From the NCBI GenBank assembly GCA_037043015.1, contig CM073325.1, positions 2,110,501-2,174,500 of the forward strand: DNA of 64,000 nucleotides, given 5' to 3'. Both the position numbers and the translations under genes were made by a program. Positions 8,975 through 49,304 of the stretch are shown here, piece by piece. Below the pieces are notes generated by a model that worked only from the letters and a program-made list of their open reading frames with translations, ran no database searches and was not told where the DNA came from. The stretch is from Bryum argenteum. Lineage: Eukaryota; Streptophyta; Bryopsida; Bryales; Bryaceae. Within the stretch, counting starts at the first letter, position 1. The number at the start of each line of letters is the position of its first letter.

Positions 8975-9001
8975 TTAACCCTTGTACATCCTTAGGGTAG
9001 T

Positions 9002-9371
9002 TTAACCCTTAAACGCCCAAGAAAGCCCAAGGAGCTCTTTTCCAACACAATCTGTTCTATAGCTCTCATTGTAATGAATTTTTCACTTACATTTTGATGT
9101 CAAACTGGTCACCTTCTTGTGATGTATTCAAAAAGTGAAATTTTACAGTTTAAATCACAAACTGTATGAGTGATTTTGTGCTTTGAAAGGATTGTGGTAG
9201 GTAGGTTGGGGTTGTACATAACCTTGTAGGAGGCTGCAAGCTTATCATTGATTGGTTAACTCATGATGCCTAAGTTCAAAAAGCGCACTATTCATGATGT
9301 CCAAGTCCAAAAGATGTTGTGATTCAATTTTGGGCTGCCCATTTCAAACCCCATGGGCGTTTAAGGATTAA
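9002..9371 (+). mobile_element. TTAA-flanked piggyBac-like MITE, short class (copy A1)
   Basis: 370 bp between TTAA at 9002-9005 and 9368-9371. Termini are CCCTTAAACGCCCA on the left and its near complement on the right. It is inserted in B1, splitting the sequence that reads TTTTTAGCCAAAAA in other B copies. It contains a duplicated CATGATG(C/T)C(C/T)AAGT(C/T)CAAAA motif. Non-coding. Confidence 0.85.
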
Positions 9372-10021
9372 GCCAAAAATCCATTTTGAAGAAAGTGACA
9401 TAGATTAAAAATAAGGATAAGCTATTCAGATATGAATCGTACAAACTTATAATAGACTTGTTGTAGATCATGTCGACTAAAACTTAACTCATGAGATCTT
9501 ATAGATTGCGAGATTATAACGTTTTAGTGTGCATAACAAGTTACAAAAAACCATCATTTTCACTTTGAAGTGAAAATATTACCAACATGAAATTTGCAAT
9601 AAGACAATCACCCGCTAGAAATTTTTCCATCTTCATATCAAAGAAACTTTTGTACCAAAAAATTTGTCAAAAAATATTTGGGCTCAAATAGTAGTCTTGC
9701 AATGGTGTACACCACCAAACATTTTACAAAGGAATCATAGCTCAAAACTTGACCCTTTGCACTCAAATTCATGCCTTATGTTCAATACATCTTCAATTGA
9801 GTCAAGGTTTCTATTACTTAAACAAGACTATAATTTGAACCAATCCCAAAAAGTAAAGTCAAATCTAACAATGAGTAAAGGAGATATAGCTCATCAAAAT
9901 TCATCCACTTTTTCACTTTTCTCAACATAAAAACATCATTGCAGATCCAATACCAAGTTATTCGGATCAAAAATCTTCCAACTACAAAGTAGTTGGAATG
10001 CATTCAAAGATCACCCTTATG

Positions 10022-10120
10022 TGAAAAATATTTGTGAAAAGATATTTATGAAAATATATATATGAAAATATATATATGAAAAAATATATATGAAAAAATA
10101 TTTATGAAAAAATATTTTTG
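10022..10120 (+). repeat. AT-rich tandem repeat inside B1
   Basis: Repeats of a unit like GAAAAAATATTTAT / GAAAATATATATAT. Other long-class copies have only one or two units at the equivalent place, so this is a local expansion. Confidence 0.75.
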
Positions 10121-10501
10121 ATCTTACATAATTGGCTTAAATGCTAAAACTTACCAAATATTTGTAAACCCAAAAACAAAAGTTGCCTTCAATAAAATGC
10201 ATGCCATTTATTCACACTTTACTACATGGATTTGAAATTTTTACCACACAAACTAAACAAAATCTGTGACCCAACGCAAGTGATTTCGTCTAAAGCAGAG
10301 TGTGGATGAAGATGTTATAGCTCTTCAAAGTTTATGCCCTTCATCCAAAATGTCGTTTTTCGACACTATGAACGTTTAGGGATTAAGAAGCTTAGTGCTT
10401 CATTATTGGTACTGCTCCATTTTGAGCACTCTCCCTCAAAAAAACTACCTTCTTAAGAATGCATGCTATGAATTTCATACTATCTTGTATATATTTACAA
10501 T

Positions 10502-10877
10502 GAGGAGGTCGTGGGTTCCATTCCCCATGCCGGCGTGGTGCTCACCACTATAGTCCACCCAACTATTGTGGGGGGTCTTCCCCATGCCGGCGTGGTGCTC
10601 ACCACTATAGTCCACCCAACTATTATGGGGGGTCTTTAGACCTTGTTGTATGGGTACCTCAAAGCCCTTTGGGGGGATACTATGTCAAGTATCTTCAAGG
10701 CATTAGTAACTAGGCTAGAAACTAGCGTAGTTATAGTGTCCACCCTCGAGAGGGGGAAGTAGTATTGTTCCAATTTCCCCTTGTCCGGTGGCCATCGGGA
10801 TATTAGCATCACGAACAGACACTTCATTCACACCGGCCTCTTAGAAAGGCACCGGAGTTTCTATCTATCTATCTATC
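10502..10877 (+). mobile_element. tRNA-derived SINE, 5' truncated, with internal duplication (copy S1)
   Basis: Flanked by a 14-bp target duplication TATATATTTACAAT (10488-10501 and 10878-10891). It starts just upstream of the B box (GGTTCCATTCC), so the A box is lost. A roughly 60-bp block beginning CCCCATGCCGGCGTGG is present twice. The 3' end is GGAGTTTCTATC followed by (TATC)n. Confidence 0.88.
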
Positions 10878-10891
10878 TATATATTTACAAT

Positions 10892-12641
10892 CTTTACCAA
10901 ACAAACTAAACTTGATTTTAGATGTTAGTTGTTATTTTAAGGGTGTTATATGTAGATTTTCAAGATCTAACATTGACGGGAGTGGGAAGTTTCTATCATT
11001 CACTCGTCTTGGGAAGATCAACTTCAGTGGTCGAGAAGGACGGTTAATGATAAATCACAACCTTCAATCGAGTGTGCTAATCGGATAAAATAGTCATTTG
11101 ATGTAGTAGAGCAAAAATATAGATTTACCACTATTGAAGATCCTCAAATCTAGACAATCCGAGCCACTTCTGAACATAAATTTTGAGTTGACATACGTCC
11201 AGACAAGGGGTTAGCAATAGTTGAGCAAGAAACAAAATACATGGGAGAGGCGATCGCTTTTGGAGAGAGAACAACTCTAAACATGATGAAAAGCAACAGT
11301 TCTATCAACTGGAAAAGGAGTACATTTAGGGCTAGGTCTGACATGGTATCAAGCCTAGTTGGCTCAGTTGGTTTGGTTGACTAGTCAAGTGACCTACCTG
11401 AGTTGGGTAGGTATCTATTTGCTGCTACTAAATCTATAGACTGTCTTTATTTCGTCTAACTCATACCGGTCTTTACATCCGATTATATATTGAATACCGA
11501 CCGGGTATCGACTAGTTCGGACCTAGCCTAAGGGAACTTCCGAAGAATATTTGGTTAACAAAGGGCTTCATAGGCGGGAGAAGTGTCCCAACAACTAATC
11601 ATGTAAGAAAGTATACCCTTGTGAGAAACAATAAGTTCATTAAACAAAGAGACGAAAACATGTAAATAGCCTTGAGCATACCAAGCAAAATGAAGGGGTG
11701 GTGTCCAACATGTTCCCGAGTGGAAAGTGAAGGAGTGAACACAAAAAAACACATGACCCAGATGAGCACACAGTTAAACCTTTAAAGTTTAAAGTTTCAA
11801 GGGGCTTGTTTGGGCCAATTTAGCTTTGATCAGCTCTCTAAATTAGTATTTTTAGCTAAAGTGCTTGACGATGAAACCTCATGCAGGTTGTAGAGTTTTT
11901 TCATACCTTTTCGAGAAGATATCTCATGCTTCAAAATTCCTCATATACTAGGTAATATCCACAGTCCAAATTTGAAAACGTTATTTGAAATTTGCCCAAG
12001 GTCGCCCAAGTTGCAATATATGGTCATTTATCCTCAAAATTTGCCCAAAATTGATTAAAACGCATAAAACTTCAAAGAATTCAATAAGAACTCAGATTTT
12101 ACTATTTTTCAAGTTTTGATTTTTTTTGTGCATGTACAAAAGGTAATACAACATGATCTTACCGTTTAGATTTTCAATCCAATGATTTTTTACATGTCTT
12201 TTTAATTGTCAAAACTCAGCCTTTGTATTTGAATCTCAGCATACCATCATGTAGAAGATCAAGCATTTCTTTGGAATTTATAGGTTGCATGATAATAATA
12301 GTTGCATGAACATATTCCTAAGTAACTCACCCAAGAAGAGGAATGTGAAGAGCCTCAATTCATATTTGCATCTAAAAAATGGCCCTCGAAACATACTTTT
12401 CCCTTTTCGCAACAAGGAAGAAAAACTTTCATAAACTTTGAACACTACAACTCCCATACGAGGAGGAATCTGAGTCTAGTAAGATTTGGTGTCGATGATC
12501 TTGTAGAAGTTAGGTACAAGATCGTATGGTTACAAACTTCAAAATTTACCATAAAATGAAAAATCTGACCTTGCAATGAAAGAAAATCTCACCTTGTGTT
12601 GAGGGTAATGCATGCAATTAGTGCCTTGAAAACTTTAAAGA
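10892..12641. other. Intergenic DNA without recognised genes
   Basis: AT-rich with only short chance ORFs. I recognise no gene, RNA or complete repeat here. Confidence 0.5.
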
Positions 12642-13010
12642 TTAACCCTTGAAGGTCCTTGCAAGCCCGAGGGGCTTTTTTCCAAGAGAATATGCCTTGT
12701 AGCTCTCATTGTACTCAACTTTTCACTTATATTTTGATGTCAAACTGGTCACCTTCTTGTGATGCATTCAAAGAGTGAAATTTTACAAATCAAAGCACAA
12801 CTTGTATGAGTGATTTTGTGCTTTAAAAGGATTGTGGTAGGTAGGTTGGGTTGTACATAAACATGTAGAAGGTTGCAAGCTCATCATTGATTGGTCCATT
12901 CATGGTGCCCAAGTTCAAAAAGTGCACTATTCATGATGCCCAAGTCCAAAAGATGTTGTGATCCAATTTCAGGCTGCCCGTTTTAGACCCCAAGGACCTT
13001 TAAGGGTTAA
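12642..13010 (+). mobile_element. TTAA-flanked piggyBac-like MITE, short class (copy A2)
   Basis: 369 bp with TTAA at 12642-12645 and 13007-13010. Termini are TTAACCCTTGAAGGTCC and GGACCTTTAAGGGTTAA. The interior matches A1 throughout (e.g. TTTTGATGTCAAACTGGTCA), with scattered differences. Confidence 0.85.
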
Positions 13011-13127
13011 CATAATGCAGGGAAAATGCAAATCACGTGTATTTGGTGCATGATGTCAATACGGACTATTCCATGGATCACCATGATCAGCTCCGCATAC
13101 TCCCAGGAAAGAGAATATTTGCTGGAA

Positions 13128-13227
13128 GATAGATAGAAACTCCGGTCCCTTTCTAAGGGGCCGGCGTGAATGAAGTGTCCGTTCGTAGGTGGACACTATA
13201 ACTATGCTAGTTTCTAGCCTAGTTACC
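13128..13227 (-). mobile_element. SINE fragment, minus orientation (S2)
   Basis: Starts with GATAGATAGAAACTCCGGTC, the complement of the SINE tail. It continues through the GGCGTGAATGAAGTGTCCG block and then jumps to GTGGACACTATAACTATGC, so an internal segment is missing. The 5' half of the SINE is absent. Confidence 0.75.
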
Positions 13228-15333
13228 ATTACTATTGCTGGAACATATAAAGAGCGATTGCAAGTGAAAGGCCTCTTCATCTTCACAAAATTGGTTATTC
13301 TCTCACCGGGAAGAGCTTTCAAACAAGGATTCTTGGTTTGATGCTTCGGTTACTTGGGATCGCCATGAATGCTGCCTCACGTTCAAACGGTCGGTATCTT
13401 CATCACGAGATCGGTTGCTACTTCTTCACGGTCGATCAGCTTCTTTCCGTGTTCAGTTTCAATGATTTCACATGCCCTCTCTTACTAATGAGCATGTGAA
13501 GGAGTTCACGGCAACCACTTGATGGTAATTATAGATAGTTTGCCAATTCATAACGGTCACGATTGTAAAATTTCGACGACGTGGGTTCGGAGCATCGTGA
13601 TTAGTAACCATGATGCACACCTTCATATCGTTAAGCACTTAGTGGCACAACACAAAAGCAAATTTGCACCAGATTGACACTTGGATTGTTGATTATCGTC
13701 TCAATTTCCACTTTTTGGCTCGTTATGAATCATAATGTTCATCGAGTCTGCCATTAGGATGAGTAATTGAGCGGATATTGTCGTGTTGCTCAAGCAACTC
13801 GACTAAGTCAATCATAAACCATAATGACCAGAATAGCAGACTCTGTGAACATTATCTACTTGTTTATAATTGATTGATGAAGTTTGTCGGTTTTTGGAAA
13901 GGAGATCAAAAGTGTATATAATATTTTTTGGCATCTATTAATCAAAGCATGTAGTTTCTTTTATTGTTTTTGTCGACTTGAGATATTGAATTTTAGAGTA
14001 ATTATGACTTGAGATATTGAATTTTAGAGTAATTGCGGCGACATGCTTGATTTTTAAAAAAAGTTTTGATGAACTTTTTGACGTCGTCATGTGGCAAAAC
14101 CTACCCATCTGCTCATAGATAATAGAAAGTAGAAAGTATTATTTAGTGAAAATAATCATCCCATATTTTGATGATGGGTTAGATGTAAGAGTAAGAAGTA
14201 TAATATCAATGAGATATTTCCAAAAATAATATGAACTACAACTTAAGTGTGTGCTTTCTTTGAATCTCTAGTTGTAGGTGGGAGATACATCAATTGTAGT
14301 TGTGTATGAAATACATCAATTGACAGTTGTAAGACATGTAGAAGTGAATGTTGGCCCCACTAAGAGATGTAGTACTTTGTGTTAAAAAACTATAGTCTAC
14401 TTGGAATGGATGCATCTTGTAGCTATTCTTTGTTCCATTATGTATAGAGACTTGGTTAACCTCTAAAGGTCCATTGTAAGCGCTTTTATAGGAGGAGAAT
14501 GTTAGAGCAACAGTCATGAAGTCTGCCTTTGCTCAAAGTAGACTATGTCTCTCGGACAATGCCCAAAAAAATGTTTGCGCCAATCATCATGTAGATTACT
14601 AAGTTGAAAATGCGCATGCAAAATTTAAGAGACCCATTCCCCTTTTTCAACCTTCATGCGGTTTTTTTCCCATAAGAAGGTACTAAAACGACGATTTGGG
14701 AAAACAAGCATAACGCATATTGTATTTTCTCTGTAAAAAAAGTAAACAGTGAGTAGGTACCTTTATGAGTTCATGACTTTTAAGCAATTTGTTTTCGCAA
14801 AATTTCAAAATAATGAAATTTTGAATGAAATAATTGGAAAATTACCAAAAAATTTAAAGATTGTATTTGTTTTTTTGGAGGTAGCCCTTGTAAAATCAGT
14901 AAATTTTTTGACTTTAGTTACTCTAGAACTTGAGCAGTCATTTAGTAGTAAACTTAATCCTTAGAAACTAATTTTGAAAAAACTAATTTTAGACTGCCCT
15001 TTTTTGGACTTGAAACCTAAAATCTTTAAATGAAGGTTTTAAAACTGGAATTTGACTTTGCAAATTTTACCACATGTACATTGATGTGTAAGGAGTACCA
15101 AAAAAAAATCATTACAAAATCTTTCATCCCCTTCATCTGAATTGCCCAAAATCGCAAGATTTTTATGGACCTTAAGAATACATAAATTTAAAAATTTTAG
15201 ACCTTCTAAATCAAATACAATTATCTTTTTGTTGTTGCTCAAAAGTTGGTGGAAACCTTCAAAGCACCATAATTCCTAAACTACAAGTTTTTTGTTGGGC
15301 TTGGAGGTGCTCATCCAAAAAGGAATTTAACTC
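13228..15333. other. Intergenic DNA with minor duplications
   Basis: No gene recognised. It contains a 31-bp tandem duplication (13975-14035, unit starting GACTTGAGATATTG). A segment at about 15015-15240 shares sequence with 16275-16440 (GGAATT(T/C)GACTTTGCA, then TTTTACCACAT). Confidence 0.5.
13975..14035 (+). repeat. 31-bp tandem duplication
   Basis: Two nearly identical units beginning GACTTGAGATATTGAATTTT at 13975 and 14006. Confidence 0.85.
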
Positions 15334-16445
15334 TTAACCCCTAAATGTCCTTGGGGTATTTTTAGCCAAAAACTCATTTTCAAAAAAAGTGATATAGATG
15401 AAAATAAAGATAAGCTATTGAGATCTCAACCGTAGAAACTTGTAATAGACTTGTAGTAGATCATGTGGACCAAAACTTGACTCATGGGACCTCATAGATT
15501 GCGAGATCATAACATATTAGTGCGCAAAACAGGCTACAAAATACCATCATTTCCACTTTGATGTGAAAATACTACCAACATGAAATTTGCAATCAGAAAA
15601 TCCGCAACTAGAAAGTTTTTCATCTTCATCTCAAAGACACTCTTGTACCAAAAAAATTCATCAAAAAAAAAATTTAGCTCAAATAGTAGCCTTCTAGTCG
15701 TGAAAACTGCCAAAAAATTTACAGAGGAAAAATAGTCCAAAACTAGACCCCTCGCACTCAAATCCATGCCTTTTCTTCAATATATCCTCGATTGGGTCAA
15801 GGTTTCTAACACTAAAAGTAGACTATAATTGGAATCCATCCCAAAAAATAAAGTCAAAATCTATCGGTGGATGAAGGAGCTCTTCAAAAATCATCCATTT
15901 TTTCACTATTTTCATCGTAGAAACATCATTGCAAAGCCAATACCAAAGTTATCTAGATCAAAAAACTTCCAACTACAAAGTTGTTGGGATGCATCTAAAT
16001 ATCAAACCTATGAAAAAAAATTCATGAAAAACTATTTTAGATTTCACATAATTGGCTTGCAATGGTAAAACATGCCAAATGTTTGAAAACCCAAAAACAA
16101 AAGCTGCCTTCACTAAAATCCATGCCATTTACTCATACTTTATTTTATGAGTGTGCAATTTTTACCACATAAACTAGACTTGATTTGTGACCTAACCCAA
16201 GTGATTTCGTTAAAAACAGAGTTTGGATGAAGAAGTTATGGCTCTTCACTCGGCTCGCAACCCAAGGATCGTCCTAGAAGACTCAAAAATTGGAATTCGA
16301 CTTTGCAGATTTTACCACATACACTTTGCAGTATAAGGAGGACTCGATAAAATTCTTAGGCAAAAATATCACTTCTAACCCCTTCATCTAGGCTGCCCGG
16401 AATTGCAAAAACTCATTTCGGGCTTCAAGGAAAGTTAGGGGTTAA
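15334..16445 (+). mobile_element. TTAA-flanked piggyBac-like element, long class (copy B2), chimeric right side
   Basis: The left end TTAACCCCTAAATGTCC is at 15334. The body matches B1, B3 and B5 until about 16250. The right part (16260-16440) instead resembles the repeat at 15015-15240, yet the end is still GGGGTTAA at 16438-16445. It is non-coding; the apparent ORFs are short. Confidence 0.65.
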
Positions 16446-16567
16446 TCTAAGTATCAATTAGAAAATCTAAGCGTAGAATCCTAAAATGAACTTGGCTTAT
16501 TACTTGCATGTACAATTTGAACCATTGATTCTTTTTCATTTGTGAGATTATAATGGTAAAAGTTGGC

Positions 16568-16936
16568 GAGGCACCACAAGCCTTGGCTTGGTGGTTAGGG
16601 CTTCGGCCCCCAATGAGGAGGTCGTGGGTTCCATTCCCCATGCCGGCGTGGTGCTTACCACTATAGTCGACCCAACTATTGTGGGGGGTCTTTGGACCTT
16701 GTTGTATGGGTACCTCAAAGCCCTTTGGGGGGATACTATGTCAAGTATCTTCAAGGCATTAGTAACTAGGCTAGAAACTAGCGTAGTTATAGTGTCCACC
16801 CTCGAGAGGGGGAAGTAGTATTGTTCCAATTTCCCCTTGTCCGGTGGCCATCGGGATATTAGCATTACGAACGGACACTTCATTCACGCCGGCCCCTTAG
16901 AAAGGGACCGGAGTTTCTATCTATCATCTATCTATC
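16568..16936 (+). mobile_element. tRNA-derived SINE, full length (copy S3)
   Basis: 369 bp flanked by an 11-bp target duplication TAAAAGTTGGC (16557-16567 and 16937-16947). The head is tRNA-like: A box around TGGCTTGGTGGTTAGG (16584-16599) and B box GGTTCCATTCC (16627-16637). The body is unrelated to tRNA. The tail is GGAGTTTCTATC with TATC/ATCT repeats. It would be transcribed by RNA polymerase III and mobilised by a LINE in trans (known for SINEs in general). The partner LINE is not identified. Confidence 0.92.
16579..16637 (+). promoter_or_regulatory. Internal pol III promoter (A and B boxes) of SINE S3
   Basis: A-box-like TGGCTTGGTGGTTAGG and B-box-like GGTTCCATTCC lie about 30 bp apart, as in tRNA genes. 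The B box differs from the usual GGTTCRANNCC at the R position. Confidence 0.7.
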
Positions 16937-17000: not shown

Positions 17001-17981
17001 TTAACCCCTAAACGCCCAAGCCTATTTTTAGCAAAAAAACACATTTCCATAGAAATTGTCATAGATGAAAATCAAGAGAAGCTATTAAAATCTTAACCGT
17101 ACAAACTTGTAATAGACTTATCGAAGATCATGTGGACCAAAATTTGAGTCATGAGGCCTTATAGATCGGGAGATCGTAACATATTAATATCAAAAACAAA
17201 CTGCAAAATTTCATCATTTCACTTTGAGGTGGAAATGCTACCAATATACCTATTGCAATGAAAAAATCACCAACTAGAAAGATGTTCACCTTCATCTTAA
17301 TAAGTCCTTTACCCAACAAAAATTCATCAAAAAAAATTCTTGGCTCAAATATAAGCCATGCAATGGTAAAAACTACCGAACATTTTACAAAGGAAAAATA
17401 GTCCAAAACTAGACCCTTTGCATTCAATTTCATGCTTTATCTTCAAAACATCTTCGATCTTGTTAAGGTTTCTACCACTTAGACTAGACTCTAATTGGAG
17501 ACCATCCCAAAAAATCAAGTTGAAATCCAACGGTGGATGAGGGAGATATAGCTCCTCAAATATCATCCATTTTCTCACTTTTTCTCATTGACAAAACATC
17601 ATTGCAAATCCAATAGCAAAATCATTTGGATCAAAAACTCCTCACTACGAAGTTGTTAAGAATCACCTTAAGATCATGACCATGAAAAAAAAAATCATGA
17701 AAAACTATTTTTAATTTCACATAATTGGCTTGCAATGGTAATACATGCCCCATGCTTGGAATCCCAAAAACAAGAGCTGTCTTCACTAAAGTGCATTCCA
17801 TTAATTCATACTTTATTGTATGGGCTTGCAAATTTTACAACACAAACTAGACTTGATTTGGAACCTAACCCAAGTGATTTCATCCAAAACGGACCTTGGA
17901 TGAGGAAGATATGGCTCTTCAAAGTTTCTGGATGTACATCCGCAATGTCGTTTTTCGACATCGTGGGCGTTTAAGGGTTAA
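17001..17981 (+). mobile_element. TTAA-flanked piggyBac-like element, long class (copy B3)
   Basis: 981 bp from TTAACCCCTAAACGCCC (17001) to GGGCGTTTAAGGGTTAA (17981). An extra GGGTTAA follows to 17988. It is the clearest uninterrupted plus-orientation long copy. The length equals copy B4 (981 bp). There is no transposase. Confidence 0.85.
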
Positions 17982-18553: not shown

Positions 18554-18632
18554 TTGAATGCATATTATGTAATTAAGACTACATGTGTAGATTATCAAAA
18601 ATGGATGTTGGGTTGGGATGTATATTATGTAA

Positions 18633-19002
18633 TTAACCCTTAAACGCCCATGGGGTCTGAAATGGGCAGCCCAAAATTGGATTACAGCATCTTTTGGACT
18701 TGGGCATCATGAATAGTGCACTTTTTGAACTTGGGCATCATGAATAGGCCAATCAATGATGAGCTTGCAACCTCCTACAAGGTTATGTACCACCCCAACC
18801 TACCTACCACAATCCTTTCAAAGCACAAAATCATTCATACAAATTGTGATTTGAATTGTGAAATTTCACTTTTTGAATGCATCAGAAGAAGGTGACCAGT
18901 TTGACATCAAAATATGAGTGAAATGTTGAGTACAGTGAGAGCTACAGGGAAGATTCTGTTGGAATCATGCCCCTCGGGCTTGCTTGGGCGTTTAAGGGTT
19001 AA
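18633..19002 (-). mobile_element. TTAA-flanked piggyBac-like MITE, short class (copy A3)
   Basis: 370 bp, inverted relative to A1. Termini are TTAACCCTTAAACGCCC and GGGCGTTTAAGGGTTAA. It shares its right TTAA (18999-19002) with the neighbouring element. Confidence 0.9.
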
Positions 19003-25855: not shown

Positions 25856-26211
25856 GATGATAGAAACTCCAGTCCCTTTCTAAGGGGTCGGCGTGAATGA
25901 AGTGTCCGTTCGTAATGCTAATATCCCGATGGCCACCGGACAAGGGGAAATTGGAACAATACTACTTCCCCCTCTCGAGGGTGGACACTATAATTACGCT
26001 AGTGTCTAGCCTAGTTACTAATGCCTTGAAGATACTTGACATAGTATCCCCCCAAAGGGCTTTGAGGTACCCATACAACAAGGTCCAAAGACCCCCCACA
26101 ATAGTTGGGTGGACTATAGTGGTGAGCACCATGCCGGCATGGGGAATAGAACCCACGACCTCCTCATTGGGGGCCTAAGCCCTAACCACCAAGCCAAGGC
26201 TTGTGGTGCCT
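25856..26211 (-). mobile_element. tRNA-derived SINE, near full length, minus orientation (copy S4)
   Basis: Flanked by a 12-bp target duplication TTGTGTATGCAT (25844-25855 and 26212-26223). On the minus strand it begins GGCACCACAAGCCTTGGC, contains A- and B-box sequence like S3, and ends at a TCTATCATC-type tail. It is nearly identical to S3 along its length. The A box has GGCTTAGGCCCC in place of GGCTTCGGCCCC. Confidence 0.9.
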
Positions 26212-27852: not shown

Positions 27853-30800
27853 ATGGAGAAAGGCTCGCTTCTATTGCGCGGCTTCTTCCTTGTGCTTCTC
27901 CTGGGAGCCACTACACGACAAATAGAAGCTTCGTCAGAATACTTGATAGGAATCGGCAGCTATGACATCACTGGACCTGCAGCCGACGTGAACATGATGG
28001 GGTATGCAAATCCTACACAAAATGCAGCTGGTATTCACATCCGGCAACGGGCACGCGTCTTCATCGTGGCCGAGCCGCCGTCTAGTAACATGGATGGCAA
28101 CAGAGTGGTGTTCGTCAACCTCGATGCGTGCATGGCTTCCATGGCTGTCACATTGCGAGTCCTTTCTCGCCTACAAGAAAGGTGCTAATCCTCCTCTTCC
28201 TAACTTCTCACATGCCTTTAGCATTCAATTGTGGTCAGTAATCATGTCAGCTTACATTTTCTGACTTTTGTTTTACGACAGATATGGAAGCCTATACACG
28301 GAGCAGAATGTGGCCATCAGCGGCACCCATACACATTCAGCTCCAGGCGGTTTTCTACAGTACGTGCTCTATCTAGTGACCTCCGTGGGTTTCGTTCGTC
28401 AGACGTTTGATGCTCTAGCAGACGGCATCGAGTTAGCCATCGTTCAAGCTCACGACAATCTGCGGCCTGGCTCTATCTACTTCAACAAAGGTTCGTGCAT
28501 GCACCTACCTTGATGTTTCGTTAGTCAAAGTGAGAAGAGATTATGATATGTATCTCTTGGAGCAGGTGAGGTTTTGGGAGCAAATATCAACCGGAGTCCG
28601 AGTGCGTACTTGAACAATCCTCCTGAAGAGCGTGCGAAATACAAATACGATGTCGACAAGGACTTGTCGTTGTTGAAGTTTGTCGATGCTGAGTGGGGTC
28701 CTGTTGGCGCCTTCAGTTGGTTTGCTGTTCATGGAACCTCCATGAATCGGACTAATGAGCTCATCAGCGGTGATAACAAGGGCGCTGCTGCTCGTTTTAT
28801 GGAAGATTGGTTTGAGAAGGAGACACCCAGTACGTTCGAATTTTCAAAGTATTATAGCGCTACTACAAAGCGATTTCTGCGTGGACGCTCCAGTATACTC
28901 GGTAAGACATTCTCAAGGTTCATCTTCTTGCTTAATTCTCGTCAGGATTGCTTCAAGATTGAACGTAATGTATGATGGTTAATGCACAAAGAAGGCTGTC
29001 GTTGAGCTTCTATTGTTCTTCAGACCATGTTGGGGTTTCTCATTTTGTGTTCAAGACCTGCTTCATTGTCTTTATCGTGTGGTTTCAAATGTTATTTCTA
29101 GGTGGTCTACGACAAGTAACAGGAGCAAAACTCAAGGATATAGCAGCTCGAATCAGATCATCAGGAGGGCATGCTACTACACGGCTTGGGAGTATCATGC
29201 GCAAAGTGAGAAAGCCTTTCGGTCCTCGTTTTGTAGCAGCATTTTGCCAAAGCAATGTTGGTGATACCTCCCCGAATACGCTGGGGGCGTTCTGCCTTGA
29301 CTCTGGCATTCCATGTGATTTTGACCACAGTACCTGCAATGGCAAGAACGAGCTTTGTGTTGGTCGAGGCCCAGCGTAAGTATATTCATATCGATTACGC
29401 CTTCACCATTAATACGTCCATTGTATTTATGGCATTCATTTTTATCTGTGCCTGTACTTTCACGGCCTGGGTTTGTACAAAAGTAACGAATAGAAATTCC
29501 ATCGACAAGAAGGCTTTGTGAGAGGTATTCTATTGGTGACTATCTTAGTTCACTGAATGGTTTTGAATCTACAGGTATCCTGAAGACCATTTTGAAAGCA
29601 CAAGAATCATAGGTGAAAAGCAATCGGACGTCGCTATCAACTTGTTTCAGAGTGCGAAAGAGCGGGTGCTTGGGAAGGTATCATTCAGGCAAACGTATGT
29701 GGACATGACGAAGCTTTCAGTAAAGTTGAGCTCTGGAGAGGTTGTGCATACATGCCCACCAGCGGTCGGGTTCAGCTTTGCAGCTGGAACTACAGATGGA
29801 CCAGGCGCTTTTGATTTCACGCAAGGTGACGATCAGGTAAATTGAATCCTTACTTGCTATCAATCTTTGATAAACTGTCTTCAATTCGAAAAGAGCAACT
29901 CAGAGCTTGGAGCACATTTTGTACTGAAGCTTGAAATTTTTAACGACGATTCTACAGGGCAATATGTTCTGGAGGCTTGTGGGTGGAGCTTTGCACAAAC
30001 CAGGCCAAGAGCAGATAGATTGCCAGCACCCGAAACCCGTGCTTATCGACACTGGCGAGATGAGCACTCCATATGACTGGGCGGTATGCTTTTCTTGCTA
30101 CTTCTTGAGATTTTTTCACATTCTTACCTTTTTTGTCAAAACGCTGAATGTTGATGTCTGTGTGCTCTTGTTTTTCAAACTACTGCATTGGAACTCTTCT
30201 CATTCCTATCTCAGATAACCGATTCTGTTAATTATGTTGATGCAGCCATCAGTGCTTCCAATTCAGATCCTTCGAGTTGGGCAGTTCGTCATCTTATCTG
30301 TACCTGGAGGTGTGTTTAATATTTCCATGTTATACATAGTTGGTTCTCGACATTTTGGTATTTTAAGCGTTTGTTCGGATACTGAGAATACGGCTTGCTA
30401 CAGAAATGACTACTATGGCTGGTCGACGTCTACGAGAAGCAGTGAAAGATACACTGGTGAGGAAAGGAAACGGGGAGTTCAATACCGACACGCGAGTTGT
30501 TATCGCAGGCTTGACTGGCGACTACTCTCAGTACATCGCCACCATTGAAGAGTATGAAATTCAAAGATACGAGGTTAGCGCATACCCTCCTGAAAGCTTT
30601 GCTTGATACCTCATGTAATATTCTCCTTTTAGTCCCATAAGAAAGATCATGGACTAATCTGTTTAAATCTGTATCTTCTCGATGCTATTGGTGCACTGTA
30701 ATTTGACATGATGTTCGGTCATGTAGGGTGCTTCGACTCTATTTGGTCCACACACGCTCGAGGGCTACATACAAGAGTTCAAGAAGCTAGCGGCAGCATT

Positions 30801-31278
30801 AGCACAAGGAATGGAAGTATCCCCAGGGCCATCACCTCCGAATCTGCTGGACAAGCAAGTGGGTTTCTTACCAGGCATCGTAACAGACGGGACGCCATTC
30901 GGAGTTTCATTCGGTGACTGCAAAGAGGATGTGCCAGCAAATGCTTCATATCGAGCTGGCGAAACCGTATCAGTAGTCTTTTACACAGGATGCCCACGGA
31001 ATGACCTGCACACTGAAGGAACGTTCGCTCTCGTTGAGTTGCTGGACTCGTCTGGCGTGTGGAAATCTGCATATGACGATGATGATTGGAGTGTGAAGTT
31101 TTCGTGGAGTCGGCCTATGAAGTTTAGTACCAACAGCTTTGCACAGATCGAATGGAAAGTTCCGGAGACTGCCACTCCTGGTGTCTACCGAATCCGACAC
31201 TTCGGTGCTTACAAACACTTCCTGGGATCTGTCAAGCACTTTACTGGCACATCAAGTGCCTTCGTAATCACCAAGTGA
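27853..31278 (+). CDS. NCER: Neutral ceramidase
   Basis: Nine exons with GT-AG borders: 27853-28181, 28282-28490, 28566-28901, 29102-29375, 29575-29836, 29958-30083, 30246-30309, 30404-30573, 30727-31278. They sum to 2322 nt, giving 773 residues, the usual size for plant neutral ceramidases. Residues 8-26 (LRGFFLVLLLGATTRQIEA) form a signal peptide. The start GIGSYDITGPAADVNMMGY is the family hallmark. Zinc-ligand histidines are in SGTHTHSAPGG (H126, H128). The nucleophile Ser lies in QSNVGDTSPN (S348), matching the NxGDxSPN motif. The C-terminal Ig-like domain ends FVITK. The enzyme hydrolyses ceramide to sphingosine and fatty acid in the secretory pathway or outside the cell. The gene faces an ABHD11-like gene tail to tail, about 700 bp apart. 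Confidence 0.95.
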
Positions 31279-33661: not shown

Positions 33662-35035
33662 TGATCGAGCCCCGCTGCAACAAGATTGAACACTCTCACA
33701 GCACTGGCAAAACCCCTCATGCTCCCCCTTCGTTCGTTGCCTTGACGGATGACGCTCTTCGTCCTTGATTTATCGTCCAGCTCATCCCTTTCACTTTTGG
33801 ATCTATAAATATTCAACATAGACCAAATCGTAGACCATATTCTTCATGTGCGATCATGATAATCAAAGTCAGAAGAAAAAAGGAAAAAGAAAAATTCAAG
33901 TTCTATAAATAACCATACTTATCAGTCTTTTCACATTGATGGTTAATCTTCATGACCTAATGACAATAGCTCCAACAAACCAACCAGCAAGCACCGAAAT
34001 CATTTCCAACTGCAGTCAACTGCAGTTTTACGGATAAGAAGCGAAGGTCTGACAGTTTATAAATTAAACCCAATTCACATCTGGAACCCAACCTTTGTTC
34101 GTTTCTCCTGTATCGGGAGCTTGCATGAATGTTTCAGTTGCGACTGATCTCCAAGGCCACTCTTCGAGCTTGGGTACAGGCCATGGTATTGCTCGTTTGC
34201 TACATGAATGTCTTGTGAGCAACAGATTTCTTGGTTAAGACAAAGATTTTCTTTTGTTTTACGCTTACAGATTTTTTTTCGGTCTGTGTACACGACAGTC
34301 GAAGACAGGAGATCGTAAGATTGTTGGAGAATTAGGGTTTCATCGGTGGGACAGATCATCGGTAATGTGCGTTCATGCTATGGTCCTTGTTCTTTGATTC
34401 TGCTCTTAGCTTGTGCTACATCCGATTCGTAATGTGCTGCATCCGATTCGTAATGTGCTGCATCCGCTTCGTAATGTGCTGCATCCGCTTCGTAATGTGC
34501 TGCATCCGCTTCGTAATGTGCTGCATCCGCTTCGTAATGTGCTGCATCCAATTCTTAACGTGTAGGGCGTTTACTTTTCGATTTAAAATTCCTTCAGAGT
34601 AGGTTAGCAAAACTGTACATTGTCTCGTTAATTGCAAATTCGGTTGGCTTCGTGTTTTTCTTAATTACAATGCTACATGTTGGAGGCGCCAAGCAGTATA
34701 TTAGACTCGTTCTTTCTTTTTCATTTTATGATAGTGTTTCGTTTAGAGAATTATTGATAGTAATTTAGGGTGTTTAAGACTTAAAAATGATATCAATCGC
34801 TGTTGCTTTTAGCCTTCCACCTATTTTACGAGAGAGATGCCCTCGAGAACCTTTACTGATAGCAAGCTAGAGTTTTAAGCAGGATTCATCCATTTCGTTT
34901 ATCGGTTGAAGCATACGGAGTTATGAAGGCATGTGAATTTGGACCGACGTGGAGGTGTTGGTTGCTCGCGTTACTAATGTGTAGATCGTTGCTTGTGCTC
35001 ACAGGGCGTAGGGGTTTGCGGTCGATGAAAGACAG
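33662..35035. other. Shared upstream region between divergent hydrolase and TRF-like genes
   Basis: Probably holds both promoters and the 5' UTR or first exon(s) of the TRF-like gene. It includes a 21-bp tandem repeat (34411-34557). I could not fix the first coding exon of the TRF-like gene. Confidence 0.5.
34411..34557 (+). repeat. 21-bp tandem repeat, seven units
   Basis: Unit TTGTGCTACATCCGATTCGTA and variants (ATGTGCTGCATCCGCTTCGTA) repeated seven times head to tail. Because 21 is a multiple of 3, one frame reads as repeats of MCCIRFV. That is likely incidental, since no connection to the downstream coding exons is evident. Confidence 0.93.
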
Positions 35036-40458: not shown

Positions 40459-40827
40459 TTAACCCTTAAACGTCTAAGGTGACCCGAGGGGTCCTTTTCC
40501 AACAGAATCTTCTCTGTAGCTCTCAATGTACTCAACTTTTCACTTATATTTTGATGTCAAACTGGTCACCTTCTTCTGATGCATTCAAAAAGTGAAATTT
40601 TAGAATTCAAGTCACAATTTGTATGAGTGATTTTGTGCTTTGAAAGGATTGTGGTATGCAGGTTGGCATTGTACAATACTTGTAGGAGGTTGCAAGCTCA
40701 TCATTGATTGGATCATTCATGATGCCCAAGTTCAAAAAGTGCACTATTCATGATGCCCGAGTCCAAAAGATGCTCTGATCCAATACTGGGCTGCCCAAAT
40801 CCGTATAGCCAGACGTTTAAGGGTTAA
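40459..40827 (+). mobile_element. TTAA-flanked piggyBac-like MITE, short class (copy A4)
   Basis: 369 bp with ends TTAACCCTTAAACGTC and GACGTTTAAGGGTTAA. The interior matches A1 to A3, including CAAACTGGTCACCTTCTTC and the duplicated CATGATGCCCAAGTTCAAAA motif. Confidence 0.9.
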
Positions 40828-42788
40828 GAAAATTCCTTCAAGATGTAGTTTTATGTCATACATTTCTTCTTATATTTAAACAAAGACTGTAAGTGCATGG
40901 CCAATTCAATGTATGAATGAAGTGTTGGATAATTAAGAAGTGCCAAAAAATTGAAGTTTTCTATATTTAGAAAATGACATTTGTAATCAAAAAACAAAAG
41001 TTGTAACAAAAGTGGGTTGACCGAATTCAAATACCCAACATTTGACCATTTGAAAAATGTTAAATTGACCATGCATGAACAATATTAAAAATCGATGTAG
41101 TATAAAGCTTGAAATTAAGATTTAATATCTTTTATTTGGAAATGTTGATAGTATGTTGATAGATGATTGTAAAAACCAATCTCTATCTAATGTGTAAATG
41201 ATCTGTAAAATTCAACACTTCCTAATCAATGATCTAAGTAATAAAAACAGCAGTAGCTTGTTTTTACTCTTGGAAGGGAAATCCCCTAGCCTATACATTT
41301 AAAAGTTTCGTATATGCACATTGTCAATGTAATGATTGACAACTTATATAGCAACTTAATTTGTCAAACACGAGGCGTTGGAATCATAGCGTCTCACTTC
41401 TCGAAGTATAGCTTGGCGATCAAGTCCATAGCCAGTCAAGCTTAGCGTGCAAGTTCTTTCGCACTCCTCGATTGTTGTTATATCTGTAACATCAAATTAT
41501 AGCGTAATGACTAAATATTCTAGAAAAAAATGGTATCATAAAAAATAAAATTAAAAAATAAATTGTAATAAACAACTTAAGACCATATTAAACCAACATA
41601 GATTCACAATTATTTTGAAGAGGCATTTGAGGCGAATTGGTGCTATACATAACTTAGGCTTTATTGTTTGTTCATATTTAAAAAGATTTTCTACGGTTCA
41701 CTTTGTTGCTTCAAGATGTTACATGGTATCAATGCTTACAACATGTGGTCAAGACTTTGAGAAAAAAGAATAATATTACACTTATATCTTTGTTTGACTA
41801 GATAACTTTCATAAATAACTAACAATCTTGAATTGTCACAATGAAACTAAACTAGGTCTTGATATATTTAAGGAAATTGAATATGTGAGATTTTTCAAAC
41901 TATATAAAACATTGAATAATTATTAATGAGTGATCTAACTTTTGATTTTTGATAATCACAATTGATATGAATTTATGTGAAATCAAGTATTATGAAACAA
42001 ATAGACATGGTATTGAGACTATTTATGGTACAATTCCAAAAAAATGTGGATGATATGAAGATATGAATCAACCAAGAACTTCAATCCTAAACCCTAAACC
42101 TTCACTTCTTAAAATTTGTGAGTGAAGAAGGTGACGTACTGAATTGATTTCGGAGGTCAGTCTTGAGCTGATTCAACTTGCGAGCCTTGATTCTAGGCAA
42201 TGAAGGGAAATAGATGTCCACGTGTCTCTACATCCACATTTGAAAATAATTTAATCAGTAACTTTGTGTGTTTCACATGAAAGTGGTTTTGGTAGCTCAA
42301 ATGAGTAACTTCACTCAAAATCAATAAAAATTACAACTGACACATTCATGTCATCATTAGTTGTAATTTTAATTATAGTTACTCATTAATTTCCAGCTGA
42401 ATTTTATTAAATTTCACCGTACATATATCGCAGGGTTGTCTTATCATACAAAAGTCCCATTATTTATCAAACACACTTAAGATGACATATACATCTAAGA
42501 CGTCATCAATGTATCAAATGTGCATCTTATCTGAAATGTGTTCCACAAATAAATAGGAATTTTGTTTACTAAGACAACGCTGACATACCCTGAGATATAT
42601 TGAGTCAAAATTAGAGTTTTTTTGTAACAACACATCTATTTAAAACAAATCGATCCGACTCGAGCTTCTCTTGCCCTTGGGGCTAGTCACGTCACATCAA
42701 AAAAGTCCCAACCATTGTGACTAAATACGCAATTTTGACTGAATTGTACCGACTGTTTGACCGAATATTTGGTAAAGCGAGAACTTAC
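40828..42788. other. AT-rich intergenic DNA
   Basis: Only short chance ORFs. No gene, RNA or complete transposon recognised. Confidence 0.5.
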
Positions 42789-42961
42789 GTGTTCATCGTT
42801 GGACTCAGGCTGTCGAGCTAGGTCGGCGGCATCGGCAGCATCGGTGTCGGAATCGTCGGATCCATTCCAATAGTTCCCCTGCACATGCATGCTCCGCATC
42901 ATCAGTATATAGACTCTACAGTAAAACTGCAACTTTGTGTCACAGGGTCAATTCACAGTAA

Positions 42962-43389
42962 GGGCGCAGTCACATGTGAGACCCGACCCCGTAAAATGGA
43001 TTGGGTCTCAGAAAAGTAAGCCACTCACATGCTTCCCAACCCAACATAATAATCACGGGCTCCCGTATTATAATTCGGGCTTGCCAAGGGAAGGTGGCAA
43101 GCCCTTGAAATTAATATAGAACCCGTATTATAAATTAGTGTGTTCTTTTGTGGCTTATTCTCTGACAATGTAAACTTAGCAGTTTACATGCTAAGTTTAC
43201 ATGCTAAGTTTACATGCCCATGCTAAGTTTACATTGTCAGGGAATAAGCCACAAAAGAACACACTAATTTATAACATCATGAATGAACATGGAAGTGACC
43301 CGTAATGTTCACCCTGAAAAGTGACCCTTCAAAAAATATGGGTAGCTACAGTGAAATTATGGGGTCGGGTCTCACATGTGAGTGCGCCC
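42962..43389. mobile_element. PIF/Harbinger-type MITE with long internal hairpin
   Basis: 428 bp flanked by TAA on both sides (42959-42961 and 43390-43392). The terminal inverted repeat begins GGGCGCAGTCACATGTGAG on the left and is the complement of CTCACATGTGAGTGCGCCC on the right, continuing into GACCCGACCCC. A three-base TAA duplication with GGGC-type ends fits the Harbinger superfamily. No transposase. Confidence 0.85.
43129..43274. repeat. Near-perfect 53-bp inverted repeat (hairpin)
   Basis: Left arm 43129-43181 (TTATAAATTAGTGTGTTCTT...) pairs with 43221-43274 with about one mismatch and one extra base. The 39-nt loop contains repeats of CATGCTAAGTTTA. A transcript would fold into a long stem. 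Confidence 0.92.
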
Positions 43390-43495
43390 TAAGTATCATG
43401 CAATGGGCCTAAATTATAACGAGGTCCGAGTTTGAATGAGTACCTGAGCCATGGTCGCAGCTTCTGGAACTGTCGGTAGCTCGTTGTTCGATAAC

Positions 43496-46452: not shown

Positions 46453-46692
46453 CTACGAGCGTGGCTTGGATGCCAGGCTCGGGTGGGGGTGGGGAGGGTG
46501 GGGTAAAATCTGCCCCTATTTTTTAATTTGTTTAGGCCCCATTTGGACACAGAGGGGGCTTCCAAGGGTAATTTGGGGCTCCAGGCCCCAAATTTTGCAA
46601 AAAAAAATTCAAAAAATGGCCCCAAATGGGGGAAACGGGAAGGGCCAGAAAATTGATCCCCACCGAGCCTGGCATCCGAGCCACGCTCGTAG
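46453..46692. mobile_element. MITE with 30-bp terminal inverted repeats
   Basis: Left end CTACGAGCGTGGCTTGGATG... and right end ...CATCCGAGCCACGCTCGTAG match as inverted repeats over about 30 bp, with one difference. The interior is 180 bp with runs of G, C and A (TTTGGGGCTCCAGGCCCC). No clear target duplication was found, so the superfamily is open. Confidence 0.8.
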
Positions 46693-47171
46693 GGGAGAAA
46701 TAAAGAGACCCGGGATGTACGGCGTCGTCGGTCCGTGTTGACCGGCCACGGCGCATGACCGCTACGTCCGTTGACTACCGACAGTGTGCTTGCGACTGCG
46801 GACTTTTCAAGGAGGGGCAGAGGGGTGTGGCCGGTGGAAAAAAATTAACAGTTAAAGTAAGGGGTTGCCTAGGATTTCAGCTTTTGATCAAAAATTCTTC
46901 TAAAGAGTGTGTAACGTAATTTCTCAAAAGTTCATCAAAATCATAAGATTGGATGTTTTGGAGAGAGAGGCAATATTGAGAAATACTTTTGTTATAGAAG
47001 ATAAATTAGTTAAATCCATGTAATTTAGAGAAACTTAGAATGTGGTGATTGTGCTCCTTATACAAAAGTAAAAGAATGAACTAAAATGACGTATATAGAT
47101 GCATTCAGAAATTTATTGAATCAAATTCCACTTGGAGCTTCAAGTAAGCCTCAAATTTAAAGGGCCTCACA
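46693..47171. other. Intergenic DNA
   Basis: No gene or repeat recognised. Confidence 0.5.
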
Positions 47172-49304
47172 TTAACTCCGAAACGTCCCAACTTATTTTT
47201 AGGCAAAAAACACATTTTCAAAAAAAGTGCTATGGATGAAAATGAGGAGAAGCTATTAACCCCTAAACGTCCCCAATGTCGTTTTTCCACATTTTGGATG
47301 GAGGGCAGAAACTTTGAAGAGCCATAACGCCTTCATCCAAACTCCGTTTTGGATGAAATTACTTGTATTGGGTTCCAAATCAAGTCTAGTTTGTGTTGTA
47401 AATTTTGCAAGCCCATACAATAAAGTATGAATTAATGGAATGCACTTTAGTGAAGGCAGCTCTTGTTTTTGGGTTTCCAAGCATGGGGCATGTATTACCA
47501 TTGCAAGCCAATTATGTGAAATTTAAAATAGTTTTACATGATTTTTTTTTTCATGGTCATAATTTTAAGGTGATTCTTAACAACTTTGTAGTGAGAAGTT
47601 TTTTGATCCAAATGATTTTGCTATTGGATTTGCAATGATGTTTTGTCAACAGAAAAAGTGAGAAAATGGATGATATTTGAGGAGCTATATCTCCTTCATC
47701 CACCGTTGGATTTCAACTTAATTTTTTGGAATGGCCTCCAATTAGAGTCTAGTCTAAGTGGTAGAAACCTTAACAAGATCGAAGATGTTTTGAAGATAAG
47801 GCATGAAATTGAATGCAAAGGGTCTAGATTTGGACTATTTTTCCTTTGTAAATTTTTTGGCAGTTTTTACCATTGCATGGCTTTTATTTGAGCCAAGAAA
47901 TTTTTTTGATGAATTTTTTTTGGGTAAAGGACTTATTAAGATGAAGGTGAACATCTTTCTAGTTGGTGATTTTTTCATTGCAATAGGTATATTGGTAGCA
48001 TTTCCACCTCAAAGTGAAAATGATGAAATTTTGGAGTTTGTTTTTAGTATTAATATGTTATGATCTCCGGATTCATAAGACCTCATGACTCAAATTTTGG
48101 TCCACATGATCTTTGATAAGTCTATTACAAGTTTGTACGGTTGAGATCTTATTAGCTTCTCTTCATTTTCATCTATGACGATTTTTATGGAAATGTGCTT
48201 TTCTGCTAAAAATAGGCTGGGACGTTTAGGGGTTAAGATCTCAACCGTACAAACTTGTAGTAAACTTGTTGTAAATCATGTGGACCAAAATTTGAGGCAT
48301 GAGGTCTGTTAGATTGGGAGATCGTGACGGGTTAGTGCTAAAAACAAATTGCAAGATTTCATCAGTTTTTCTTTGGAGTGAAAACTTTACCAATAAACCA
48401 TTCACAAAAATATAACACTCACTACAAAGTTCATTTTTATCTTAATGGAACCTTTGTCTAAAAAAAAGTCATCAAAAAAAATTTCTTGGCTCACAATGTA
48501 GCCTTGCAATGGTGAGAATTGCCAAAAATATTATAACAGAAAATTAGTCCAAAACTAGACCCTTTGCACTCAAGTTCATGCCTTATCTTCAAAACATCTT
48601 CCATCTTGTTAAGATTTCTATCACTAAAACTAGACTCTAATTGAAAGCCATCTCAAAATACAAAGTTGAAATCCAACGACGCATGAAGGTGATATAGCTT
48701 TTCAAATATCATTCATATTTTCACTTTTTTTATTGAAAAATAAATAAACTGCAAATCCAATAGCAAAAGTATTTGGATCAATAATTTGAAGGTTTCTACC
48801 ATTAAAAATAGACTACAATTGGAATCCATCCCAAAAAATAAAGTCAAAATCTAACGGAGGATGAAGAAGATCTAGCTCTTCAAAAATCATCCATTTTTTC
48901 ACTTTTTTCATCGTAGAAACATCATTGCAAAGCCAATACCAAAGTTATCTAGATCAAAAAACTTCCAACTACAAAGTTGTTGGGATGCATCTAAATATAA
49001 AACCAATGGAAAAAAAAATCATGAAAAACTATTTTAGATTTCACATAATTGGCTTGCAATGGTAAAACATGCCAAATGTTTGAAAACCCAAAAACAAGAG
49101 ATGCCTTCACTAAAATCCATGCCATTTATTCATTCTTTATTTTATGAGTCTGCAATTTTTACCGCATAAACTAGACTTGATTTGTGACCTAACTCAAATG
49201 ATTTCGTCAAAAACGGAGTTTAGATGAAGAAGTTATGGCTCTTCAAAGTTTCTGCCCTTCATCCAAAATGTCGTTTTTTGACACTAGGGACGTTTAGGGG
49301 TTAA
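47172..49304 (+). mobile_element. TTAA-flanked piggyBac-like element, long class (copy B5), split by B4
   Basis: Starts TTAACTCCGAAACGTCC (47172) and ends GGGACGTTTAGGGGTTAA (49304). Removing B4 (47256-48236) leaves about 1.15 kb matching B2 and B3. The interruption falls at AGCTATTAA|GATCTCAACC, where other copies read AGCTATT(A/G)A... without insert. Confidence 0.85.
47256..48236 (-). mobile_element. TTAA-flanked piggyBac-like element, long class (copy B4), nested in B5
   Basis: 981 bp from TTAACCCCTAAACGTCC to GGGACGTTTAGGGGTTAA, in opposite orientation to B5, with TTAA on each side. The length is the same as B3. Short ORFs inside are shared with other copies but show no transposase motif. 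Confidence 0.88.

What the first reader, a model, noticed from the sequence alone, without database searches (positions are those of the whole stretch)
8975..49304. A family of TTAA-bounded, CCC...GGG-ended elements that look like piggyBac-type transposons in a plant
At least ten copies in three classes (A about 370 bp, C 243 bp, B 981-1150 bp) start TTAACC(C)CTAAACG and end CGTTTAGGG(G)TTAA. TTAA target sites with CCY...RGG ends are the hallmark of piggyBac (established for animals and fungi). piggyBac elements are, to my knowledge, rarely if ever described in land plants. No transposase is in the window, so an autonomous partner must lie elsewhere or be lost.
Basis: partly seen in the sequence, partly recalled or inferred. 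Interest (0 to 1): 0.78.

Follow-up and report, generated by a model that had tools for sequence, protein, structure and literature searches.

The report
piggyBac jumping genes in a moss
The short repeated elements in this stretch of moss DNA look like small passenger copies of piggyBac, a jumping gene known mainly from animals, and the same genome holds full-length piggyBac elements, some copied so recently that they are almost identical.

Summary
The window has four class A elements (about 370 bp), one class C (243 bp), five class B (about 0.98-1.16 kb) and a B fragment, with TTAA-bounded CCCYTAAACG-type ends. The host is a moss by its LEAFY gene. The missing partner exists: 116 scored piggyBac (DDE_Tnp_1_7) matches in the genome. 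In 11 of 20 loci read, the transposase lies between TTAA-flanked inverted ends; one subfamily shares class A's ends. Genome-wide, 1285 class A-length elements have exact 10-bp ends, 1147 of them with TTAA on both sides, control 0. Ungapped empty sites show the 4-bp duplication. One transposase lineage has 40 of 40 scored matches (the query's own included) at a rounded 100%; 20 of 20 sampled copies have TTAA on both sides. New detail: left ends of class A and of autonomous elements keep a palindrome of varying letters centred at bp 25, where the T. ni Cys-rich-domain dimer binds (PMC7351741, passages). Recent copying is shown; movement today is inferred.

The parts
9002..9371 (+). class A element A1 (with both TTAA), inserted in a class B copy
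   Evidence: 89% to A3, 86% to A2 over 370 bp; joined flanks match the start of the B copy at 15334 (80% over 87 bp, 2 gaps)
8975..10386 (+). class B copy, interrupted by A1 (pieces 8975-9005 and 9372-10386)
   Evidence: blastn to B 17001-17981; left piece found by joining A1's flanks
12642..13010 (+). class A element A2; left palindrome AAGCCCGAGGGGCTT
15334..16445 (+). class B copy; B homology ends at 16248, a TTAA-bounded end of another type lies at 16445, so the 3' boundary is unsure
   Evidence: 80% to B over 15334-16248; TIR pair 12 of 14
17001..17981 (+). class B element, 981 bp, TTAA both sides
   Evidence: two copies elsewhere in the genome at 99%
18633..19002 (-). class A element A3, shares one TTAA with C1
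   Evidence: 14 of 14 TIR match; 99.4% identical to the copy in L039
18999..19241 (+). class C element, 243 bp, inserted next to A3
   Evidence: TIR 13 of 14; 307 elements of this length genome-wide with exact TTAACCCTTAAACGTC...GACGTTTAAGGGTTAA ends, control 0
18558..18617 (+). natural empty site: repeat unit with a single TTAA where A3+C1 sit in the next unit
   Evidence: joined flanks of A3+C1 match at 98.3% over 60 bp without gaps
40459..40827 (+). class A element A4; left palindrome GACCCGAGGGGTC
47172..49304 (+). class B copy interrupted by another B (pieces 47172-47259 and 48237-49304)
47256..48236 (-). class B element, 981 bp, nested in the B copy 47172-49304
   Evidence: TIR 14 of 14; joined flanks match without gaps in the B copies at 15334 and 17001, in L022 and in the inserted element itself, and with 2 gaps in the B copy 8975-10386
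51555..52276 (-). old B-related fragment without ends
   Evidence: about 70% over 780 aligned bp

Best explanation
The A, B and C elements are non-autonomous (MITE-like) members of the piggyBac superfamily in a moss. A piggyBac transposase encoded by full-length elements elsewhere in the genome recognises the CCCYTAAA-type inverted ends and, on class A left ends at least, a palindrome centred at bp 25. It cuts the element out through TTAA hairpins and inserts it at another TTAA. Shown: the ends, the target duplication, the empty sites, full-length elements with conserved DDD residues and matching ends, and very recent copying of one transposase lineage. Inferred: cross-mobilisation of class A by the L013/L014 subfamily, binding of the bp-25 palindrome by the C-terminal cysteine-rich domain dimer, seamless excision, and movement today.
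For: Transposase: PF13843 has 116 scored matches of 776 candidates, best E 7.4e-82, 93 of 116 rows without an in-frame stop by my count. Full-length elements: 11 of 20 loci read have TTAA-bounded ends matching at 14 or more of 16; the same loci give 0 or 1 with five other tetramers in inverted orientation and 0 with TTAA in direct orientation. Residues: Asps align with D268, D346, D447 of T. ni piggyBac (6x67, E 2e-29), and D561, D640, D753 are invariant in the 8 divergent proteins aligned. Link to class A: A3 matches the L013/L014 ends over 36 bp (92%) and 42-45 bp (84-86%). Target: 1147 of 1285 class A elements have TTAA on both sides; 20 of 20 sampled copies of the recent lineage have TTAA/TTAA with different flanks; one near-identical copy sits between ATAA and ATAA (L032), so the 4 bp is a duplication. 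Empty sites: ungapped for A3+C1, for the nested B 47256-48236, for class A copies M_L037 and M_L051, and for a 5.76-kb autonomous element (L023) inside a B copy (3 of 5 full-span matches ungapped). Recency: 40 of 40 scored matches to the L029 ORF, its own place included, round to 100% over 2730 bp; L030 and L031 have 0 mismatches and 7 gap positions in 5706 aligned positions.
Against: For B and C no autonomous element matching at both ends was found among 20 loci. In 6 of 20 loci no clear end pair was found (L015, L017, L019, L021, L025, L027), and L022 and L028 reach only 12 and 13 of 16. A simple motif search found all three Asp motifs in 12 of 20 loci; 4 of the other 8 are in the alignment and have the Asps. 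Many near-identical copies carry frameshifts: of 8 further ORF copies read, 0 have the full 909-aa frame (longest 880 aa), L030-L032 are shorter too, and the last part of L029's own frame rests on a single-base variant present in 2 of 11 aligned copies; some may be assembly errors. 138 of 1285 class A elements lack TTAA on one or both sides. A's interior has no match in the autonomous elements read, so A is not a simple deletion derivative of those. Only 10 of 40 joined-flank queries gave a spanning match, as expected where no paralogue of the site was held.
Confidence: 0.96

Rival explanations
1. The A, B and C elements are MITEs of another cut-and-paste superfamily that happen to sit at TTAA (for example PIF/Harbinger with a 3-bp, or Tc1/mariner with a TA duplication; these sizes are recalled).
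For: A central TA in TTAA could in principle be read as a TA duplication. For B and C no two-ended match to an autonomous piggyBac element was found.
Against: The class A ends bracket a piggyBac DDD transposase. Empty sites keep a single TTAA. One near-identical autonomous copy has ATAA on both sides, which fits a 4-bp duplication.
Confidence: 0.02
2. The transposases are contamination (insect, fungus) and the window elements are unrelated plant repeats.
For: piggyBac is best known from animals and fungi (recalled).
Against: Contig C5 carries both the window and the moss-like LEAFY gene. A 5.76-kb piggyBac element is inserted inside a class B copy of the window's family. The near-identical copies lie on contigs C1-C11, and the 20 whose ends were read have different flanks.
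Confidence: 0.01
3. The family is an extinct relic: the transposase no longer works and nothing has moved for long.
For: The class A copies read differ by a median of about 13%; the recent ORF copies read are largely frame-broken.
Against: 40 of 40 scored matches to the L029 ORF round to 100% identity; A3 and the L039 copy are 99.4% identical; the window B 17001-17981 has two 99% relatives.
Confidence: 0.1

Closest known systems
piggyBac (IFP2) of Trichoplusia ni; structures 6x67, 6x68
   Same: TTAA target and duplication, CCC...GGG ends (recalled), DDD catalytic domain with aligned D268/D346/D447, a left-end palindrome around bp 25 (PMC7351741, passages read)
   Different: Moss elements are about 4.95-6.46 kb against 2472 bp (PMC10140906, passage); long moss ORFs are about 870-1190 aa with about 390 or more residues before the domain, against 594 aa; similarity only about 105 bits
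piggyBat of bats (9c0f)
   Same: DDD domain and C-terminal Cys-rich region align
   Different: Low similarity; animal element
piggyBac-related MITEs of insects (recalled; a Helicoverpa MITE paper, PMC9033116, was seen in a search listing only)
   Same: Short, TTAA-flanked, share ends with autonomous elements (recalled)
   Different: Here in a moss, over a thousand class A copies, and a palindrome kept through paired changes
PiggyBac line in the Ceratopteris fern repeat table (PMC6890710, passage read)
   Same: PiggyBac-labelled repeats reported in a land plant (1230 copies, 122,417 bp)
   Different: A label on pieces of about 100 bp on average; the passage shows no full-length elements, ends or target sites

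Membership tests
piggyBac superfamily | 4-bp TTAA target-site duplication | tested here: met
   1147 of 1285 class A; 20 of 20 sampled recent copies
piggyBac superfamily | empty sites with a single TTAA | tested here: met
   ungapped joined-flank matches for A3+C1, B 47256-48236, M_L037, M_L051 and, in 3 of 5 full-span matches, L023's element; 10 of 40 queries had any spanning match
piggyBac superfamily | inverted ends beginning CCY and ending RGG | tested here: met
piggyBac superfamily | DDE_Tnp_1_7 transposase between matching ends | tested here: met
   11 of 20 loci with ends at 14 or more of 16
piggyBac superfamily | catalytic Asp triad D268/D346/D447 (identity as catalytic recalled) | tested here: met
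   alignment; invariant in 8 of 8 aligned proteins; motif search alone found all three in 12 of 20 loci
piggyBac superfamily | C-terminal cysteine-rich domain | tested here: met
   alignment with piggyBat nearly to its C-terminal end; C855, C858, C874 invariant in the 8 proteins aligned; several near-identical copies lose it by frameshift
piggyBac superfamily | hairpin intermediate and seamless excision | not testable with these tools
   needs an assay
piggyBac MITE (class A) | no coding capacity, ends shared with an autonomous element | tested here: met
   36 bp at 92% and 42-45 bp at 84-86% to L013/L014; about 370 bp long; no ORF of 130 aa or more there
piggyBac MITE (classes B and C) | ends shared with an autonomous element beyond the first 10-14 bp | tested here: inconclusive
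   B: 27 bp at 89% to the 3' end of L029; C: one end, 33 bp at 82%, to the left end of L013/L014; no two-ended match seen
Tc1/mariner, PIF/Harbinger, hAT | TA, 3-bp or 8-bp target duplication (recalled) | tested here: not met
   4-bp duplication

The most novel reading that the evidence does not exclude
A moss carries several piggyBac subfamilies that are or were very recently moving, and the palindrome at bp 25 of the left end is an address read by the C-terminal cysteine-rich domain dimer. Arms change in step on both sides between subfamilies and MITE groups, so that transposase and passenger elements co-evolve; this would make mosses a natural plant home of active piggyBac.
Probability: 0.4. 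Interest if true: 0.75.

Novelty: new member of a known kind. Interest (0 to 1): 0.62.

Why it matters
piggyBac is a main gene-transfer tool, also tried in plants, and is usually treated as an animal and fungal element (recalled). A land plant with over a thousand piggyBac MITEs and a burst of near-identical full-length copies gives a native plant system in which TTAA targeting, silencing and MITE amplification can be studied. It also warns that plant transposon annotation, whose usual superfamily lists leave piggyBac out (recalled), may miss it. The palindrome at the position of the T. ni Cys-rich-domain site gives a direct test of how passenger elements are recognised.

Tried and rejected
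Contamination, a non-piggyBac superfamily and an extinct relic were considered and rejected or marked down (see rivals). A viral-contig scan with an alignment of 8 transposases found 48 pattern hits, none a relative, and plasmids gave no match: no hint of a vector. Rfam found nothing in the window at the gathering threshold. The first automatic pairing for L013 (16 of 16, 7.3 kb) was rejected because its outer end belongs to a neighbouring class A element; the 4.95-kb pair (14 of 16) was used. The palindrome is not significant in every single end (shuffle p from 0 to 1) and is absent or weak at bp 25 in L018, L026, L020, L022, A1, C1 and most B ends; the claim rests on the pooled profile (a first run with two ends turned the wrong way gave 0.759 instead of 0.797 for class A). 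On the class A right ends no centre passes the same test (189 of 2000 permutations reach the top value); the autonomous right ends peak at 18.5 (19 of 2000), which was not followed. Structure prediction was not run because its stated rule covers window proteins and loci of certain tools only, and sequence similarity was decisive. Literature: ten searches. In these listings, some of them capped, I saw no paper describing intact piggyBac elements in a moss; the Niphotrichum moss hit was the word 'piggybacking'. Animal papers say in passing that piggyBac occurs in plants (PMC10140906, PMC10813416, passages), without an example that I saw. The library lacks most subscription journals, so this does not show absence from print.
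Full report
Observation. By blastn and by pairing of TTAA-bounded ends there are four class A elements, one class C, five class B elements (two of them split by other insertions) and one B fragment. No transposase was found in the window (tblastn best E 0.54).

Host. The window lies on contig C5 of a 258.8-Mb genome in 25 contigs. The best LEAFY match lies on the same contig; its DNA-binding domain, joined from two exons, matches PDB 4bhk (recalled to be from Physcomitrium) over 165 residues with 4 differences by my count (385.7 bits), ahead of 294.9 bits for the next entry and 273.3 for 2vy1 (recalled to be Arabidopsis LEAFY). The host is therefore a moss; the species was not identified.

The autonomous partner. 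A search with the piggyBac domain PF13843 gave 116 scored matches from 776 first-look candidates, best E 7.4e-82; 93 of 116 rows show no in-frame stop by my count. I read about 9 kb around 20 of the 116: the 16 best-scoring and 4 from a group of equal score. In 11 of 20 a TTAA-bounded inverted end pair matches at 14 or more of 16 bases, giving elements of about 4.95 to 6.46 kb. The same loci reach 14 of 16 in 1, 0, 1, 0 and 1 cases with AATT, ATAT, TATA, GATC and CATG in inverted orientation, and in 0 with TTAA in direct orientation. L028 and L022 reach 13 and 12; L032 has ATAA instead of TTAA on both sides; six loci show no clear pair. The ends fall into subfamilies: CCCTTAAACGCCC (L013, L014), CCCCTAAAGATCC (L018, L026; L016 has it at its left end), CCCCTCAAGGCCC (L020), CCCCTAACTGCCC/CCCCTAAGTGCCC (L023, L024), CCCCTAAAGGCCC (L029-L032).

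Transposase. The ORFs in L014 (897 aa) and L029 (909 aa) match PF13843 with E 1.4e-82 and 1.3e-75, T. ni piggyBac 6x67 with E 2e-29 and 4e-25, and piggyBat 9c0f with E 8e-24 and 3e-27. In the alignment the Asps at 268, 346 and 447 of the 594-aa chain are matched; that these three are the catalytic ones is recalled (the paper's passages name a conserved DDD motif; PMC7351741). In an alignment of 8 divergent moss proteins D561, D640, D753 and C855, C858, C874 are invariant. A cruder motif search found all three Asp motifs in 12 of 20 loci.

Link to the window. The class A element A3 matches the L013/L014 left end over 36 bp at 92% and the right end over 42-45 bp at 84-86%, better than the other subfamilies among the 20 loci. 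Its interior has no match at E below 0.5 inside those elements; whole class A copies lie in L013, L021 and L022 as separate insertions (the middle of that output was cut, but the A3 rows down to that E-value were seen). For B the best end match that I saw is 27 bp at 89% to the 3' end of L029; for C one end matches the L013/L014 left end over 33 bp at 82%.

Numbers and target sites. The pattern CCCTTAAACG-N(322-352)-CGTTTAAGGG occurs 1285 times in the genome, reversed control 0 (each element reads the same on both strands and is counted once here). With TTAA added on both sides it occurs 1147 times (89%). Of 20 of these read with flanks (chosen from the first listed places, so not a random sample), 14 have TTAA/TTAA, 4 share the same flanks and are copies of one larger repeat with one changed side, and 2 have one base changed on one side. 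Class C: 307 elements with exact ends and TTAA. Class B: 41 full or near-full matches at 93-100%, the query's own place included, with 40 candidates scored of 6118, a lower bound.

Empty sites. A3 and C1 sit side by side in the second of two similar units; the first unit, 18558-18617, is the empty site, 98.3% over 60 bp without gaps. The joined flanks of the nested B 47256-48236 match without gaps at 15365-15475 (88%), 17034-17144 (85%), L022 (85%) and the homologous stretch of the inserted element itself (48202-48093, 85%), and with 2 gaps at 9369-9482 (79%). A 5758-bp autonomous element (L023) is inserted in a B copy, and its joined flanks match B copies over the full span in 5 places at 72-83%, 3 of them ungapped. 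M_L037 matches L019 at 86% over 116 bp, ungapped, and M_L051 matches B copies ungapped at 75-89%. In all 10 of 40 joined queries had a spanning match; besides those named here A1 (2 gaps), M_L043, M_L045, M_L052 (its own repeated flank, ungapped over 59 bp) and P_L024, which I do not lean on.

Recent activity. The L029 ORF as a DNA query gave 40 full-length matches among 40 scored of 209 candidates, its own place included, all rounded to 100%, on contigs C1-C11. L030 and L031 show 0 mismatches and 7 gap positions over 5706 aligned positions. Ends of 20 of these 40, none of them L029-L032, were fetched: 20 of 20 have TTAA on both sides, identical 22-bp ends and different flanks, so they are independent insertions. 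Against this, of 8 further ORF copies read none keeps the full 909-aa frame (longest open stretch 880 aa); single-base indels, some shared between copies, break them, and the last part of L029's own frame depends on a variant seen in 2 of 11 aligned copies. L030, L031 and L032 are also shorter (515, 831, 831 aa). So recent copying is shown, but which copy supplied the enzyme is not, and assembly errors are possible.

The palindrome. At left ends a palindrome with different letters is centred at transposon bp 25: ATGCCCCAGGGGCAT in L013, AAGCCGAATCGGCTT in L016 and L024, AAGCCCGAGGGGCTT in A2, GACCCGAGGGGTC in A4. Pooled over 19 distinct class A left ends (from 27 elements, 3 of 4 copies of one larger repeat dropped) complementarity is 0.797 at centre 25.0, and over 8 distinct autonomous left ends (from 9 elements) 0.786; column permutations reach this at centre 25 in 0 of 2000 each, and at any centre in 3 and 1 of 2000. 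Right ends do not show it (0.238 and 0.159 at 25). In class A, positions 20/30 are G-C in 10, A-T in 5, C-G in 1 and unpaired in 3 of 19; 19/31 are A-T in 9, G-C in 6 and unpaired in 4; farther out (17/33) the pairing fades. Several single ends lack it. The T. ni paper says that the Cys-rich domain dimer binds a palindrome within bp 17-33 of one left end, with the minor groove narrowed at about bp 25 (passages). My inference is that the moss palindrome is the same kind of site. The permutation test does not remove relatedness of the sequences, so the covariation is suggestive.

Mechanism. By homology: a transposase dimer binds both ends, cuts with a 4-nt TTAA hairpin, and inserts at another TTAA (PMC7351741, passages). 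Shown here are the marks that this leaves; excision and binding were not tested.

Novelty. By each feature tested the autonomous and class A elements are piggyBac, so they are new members of a known kind; B and C are assigned by ends and target. In ten searches I saw no description of intact piggyBac elements in a moss; a fern table lists a small amount labelled PiggyBac. The library is limited, and Repbase entries could not be checked.

Noticed in passing
10498-10870, 13125-13230, 16569-16928, 25859-26211: Another dispersed repeat, up to about 350 bp, pieces 89-98% identical between copies, lying among the piggyBac elements; not classified.
   Followed up: no
43128-43274: Near-perfect 54-nt inverted repeat (98%) with a 39-nt spacer, possibly a small MITE or hairpin.
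   Followed up: no
34391-34579: Array of 21-bp units (TGTGCTGCATCCGCTTCGTAA).
   Followed up: no
54816-56795: Protein with DUF4218 and DUF4216, domains of CACTA-type plant transposons (recalled).
   Followed up: partly
28574-31278: Exons of a neutral/alkaline ceramidase gene between the element clusters.
   Followed up: partly
L033, L035, L036, L038: Four class A copies with the same flanks on C1: an A element carried inside a larger dispersed repeat, one side TTTT or ATTT instead of TTAA.
   Followed up: partly
L032: Near-identical copy of the recent lineage inserted at ATAA with ATAA on both sides.
   Followed up: partly
right ends of A elements and L013/L014, about bp 27-37: Shared GGGCAGCCC motif, palindromic about bp 32.
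   Followed up: partly
L093-L100: Near-identical transposase copies differ largely by single-base indels, some shared by two or three copies, with few substitutions.
   Followed up: partly
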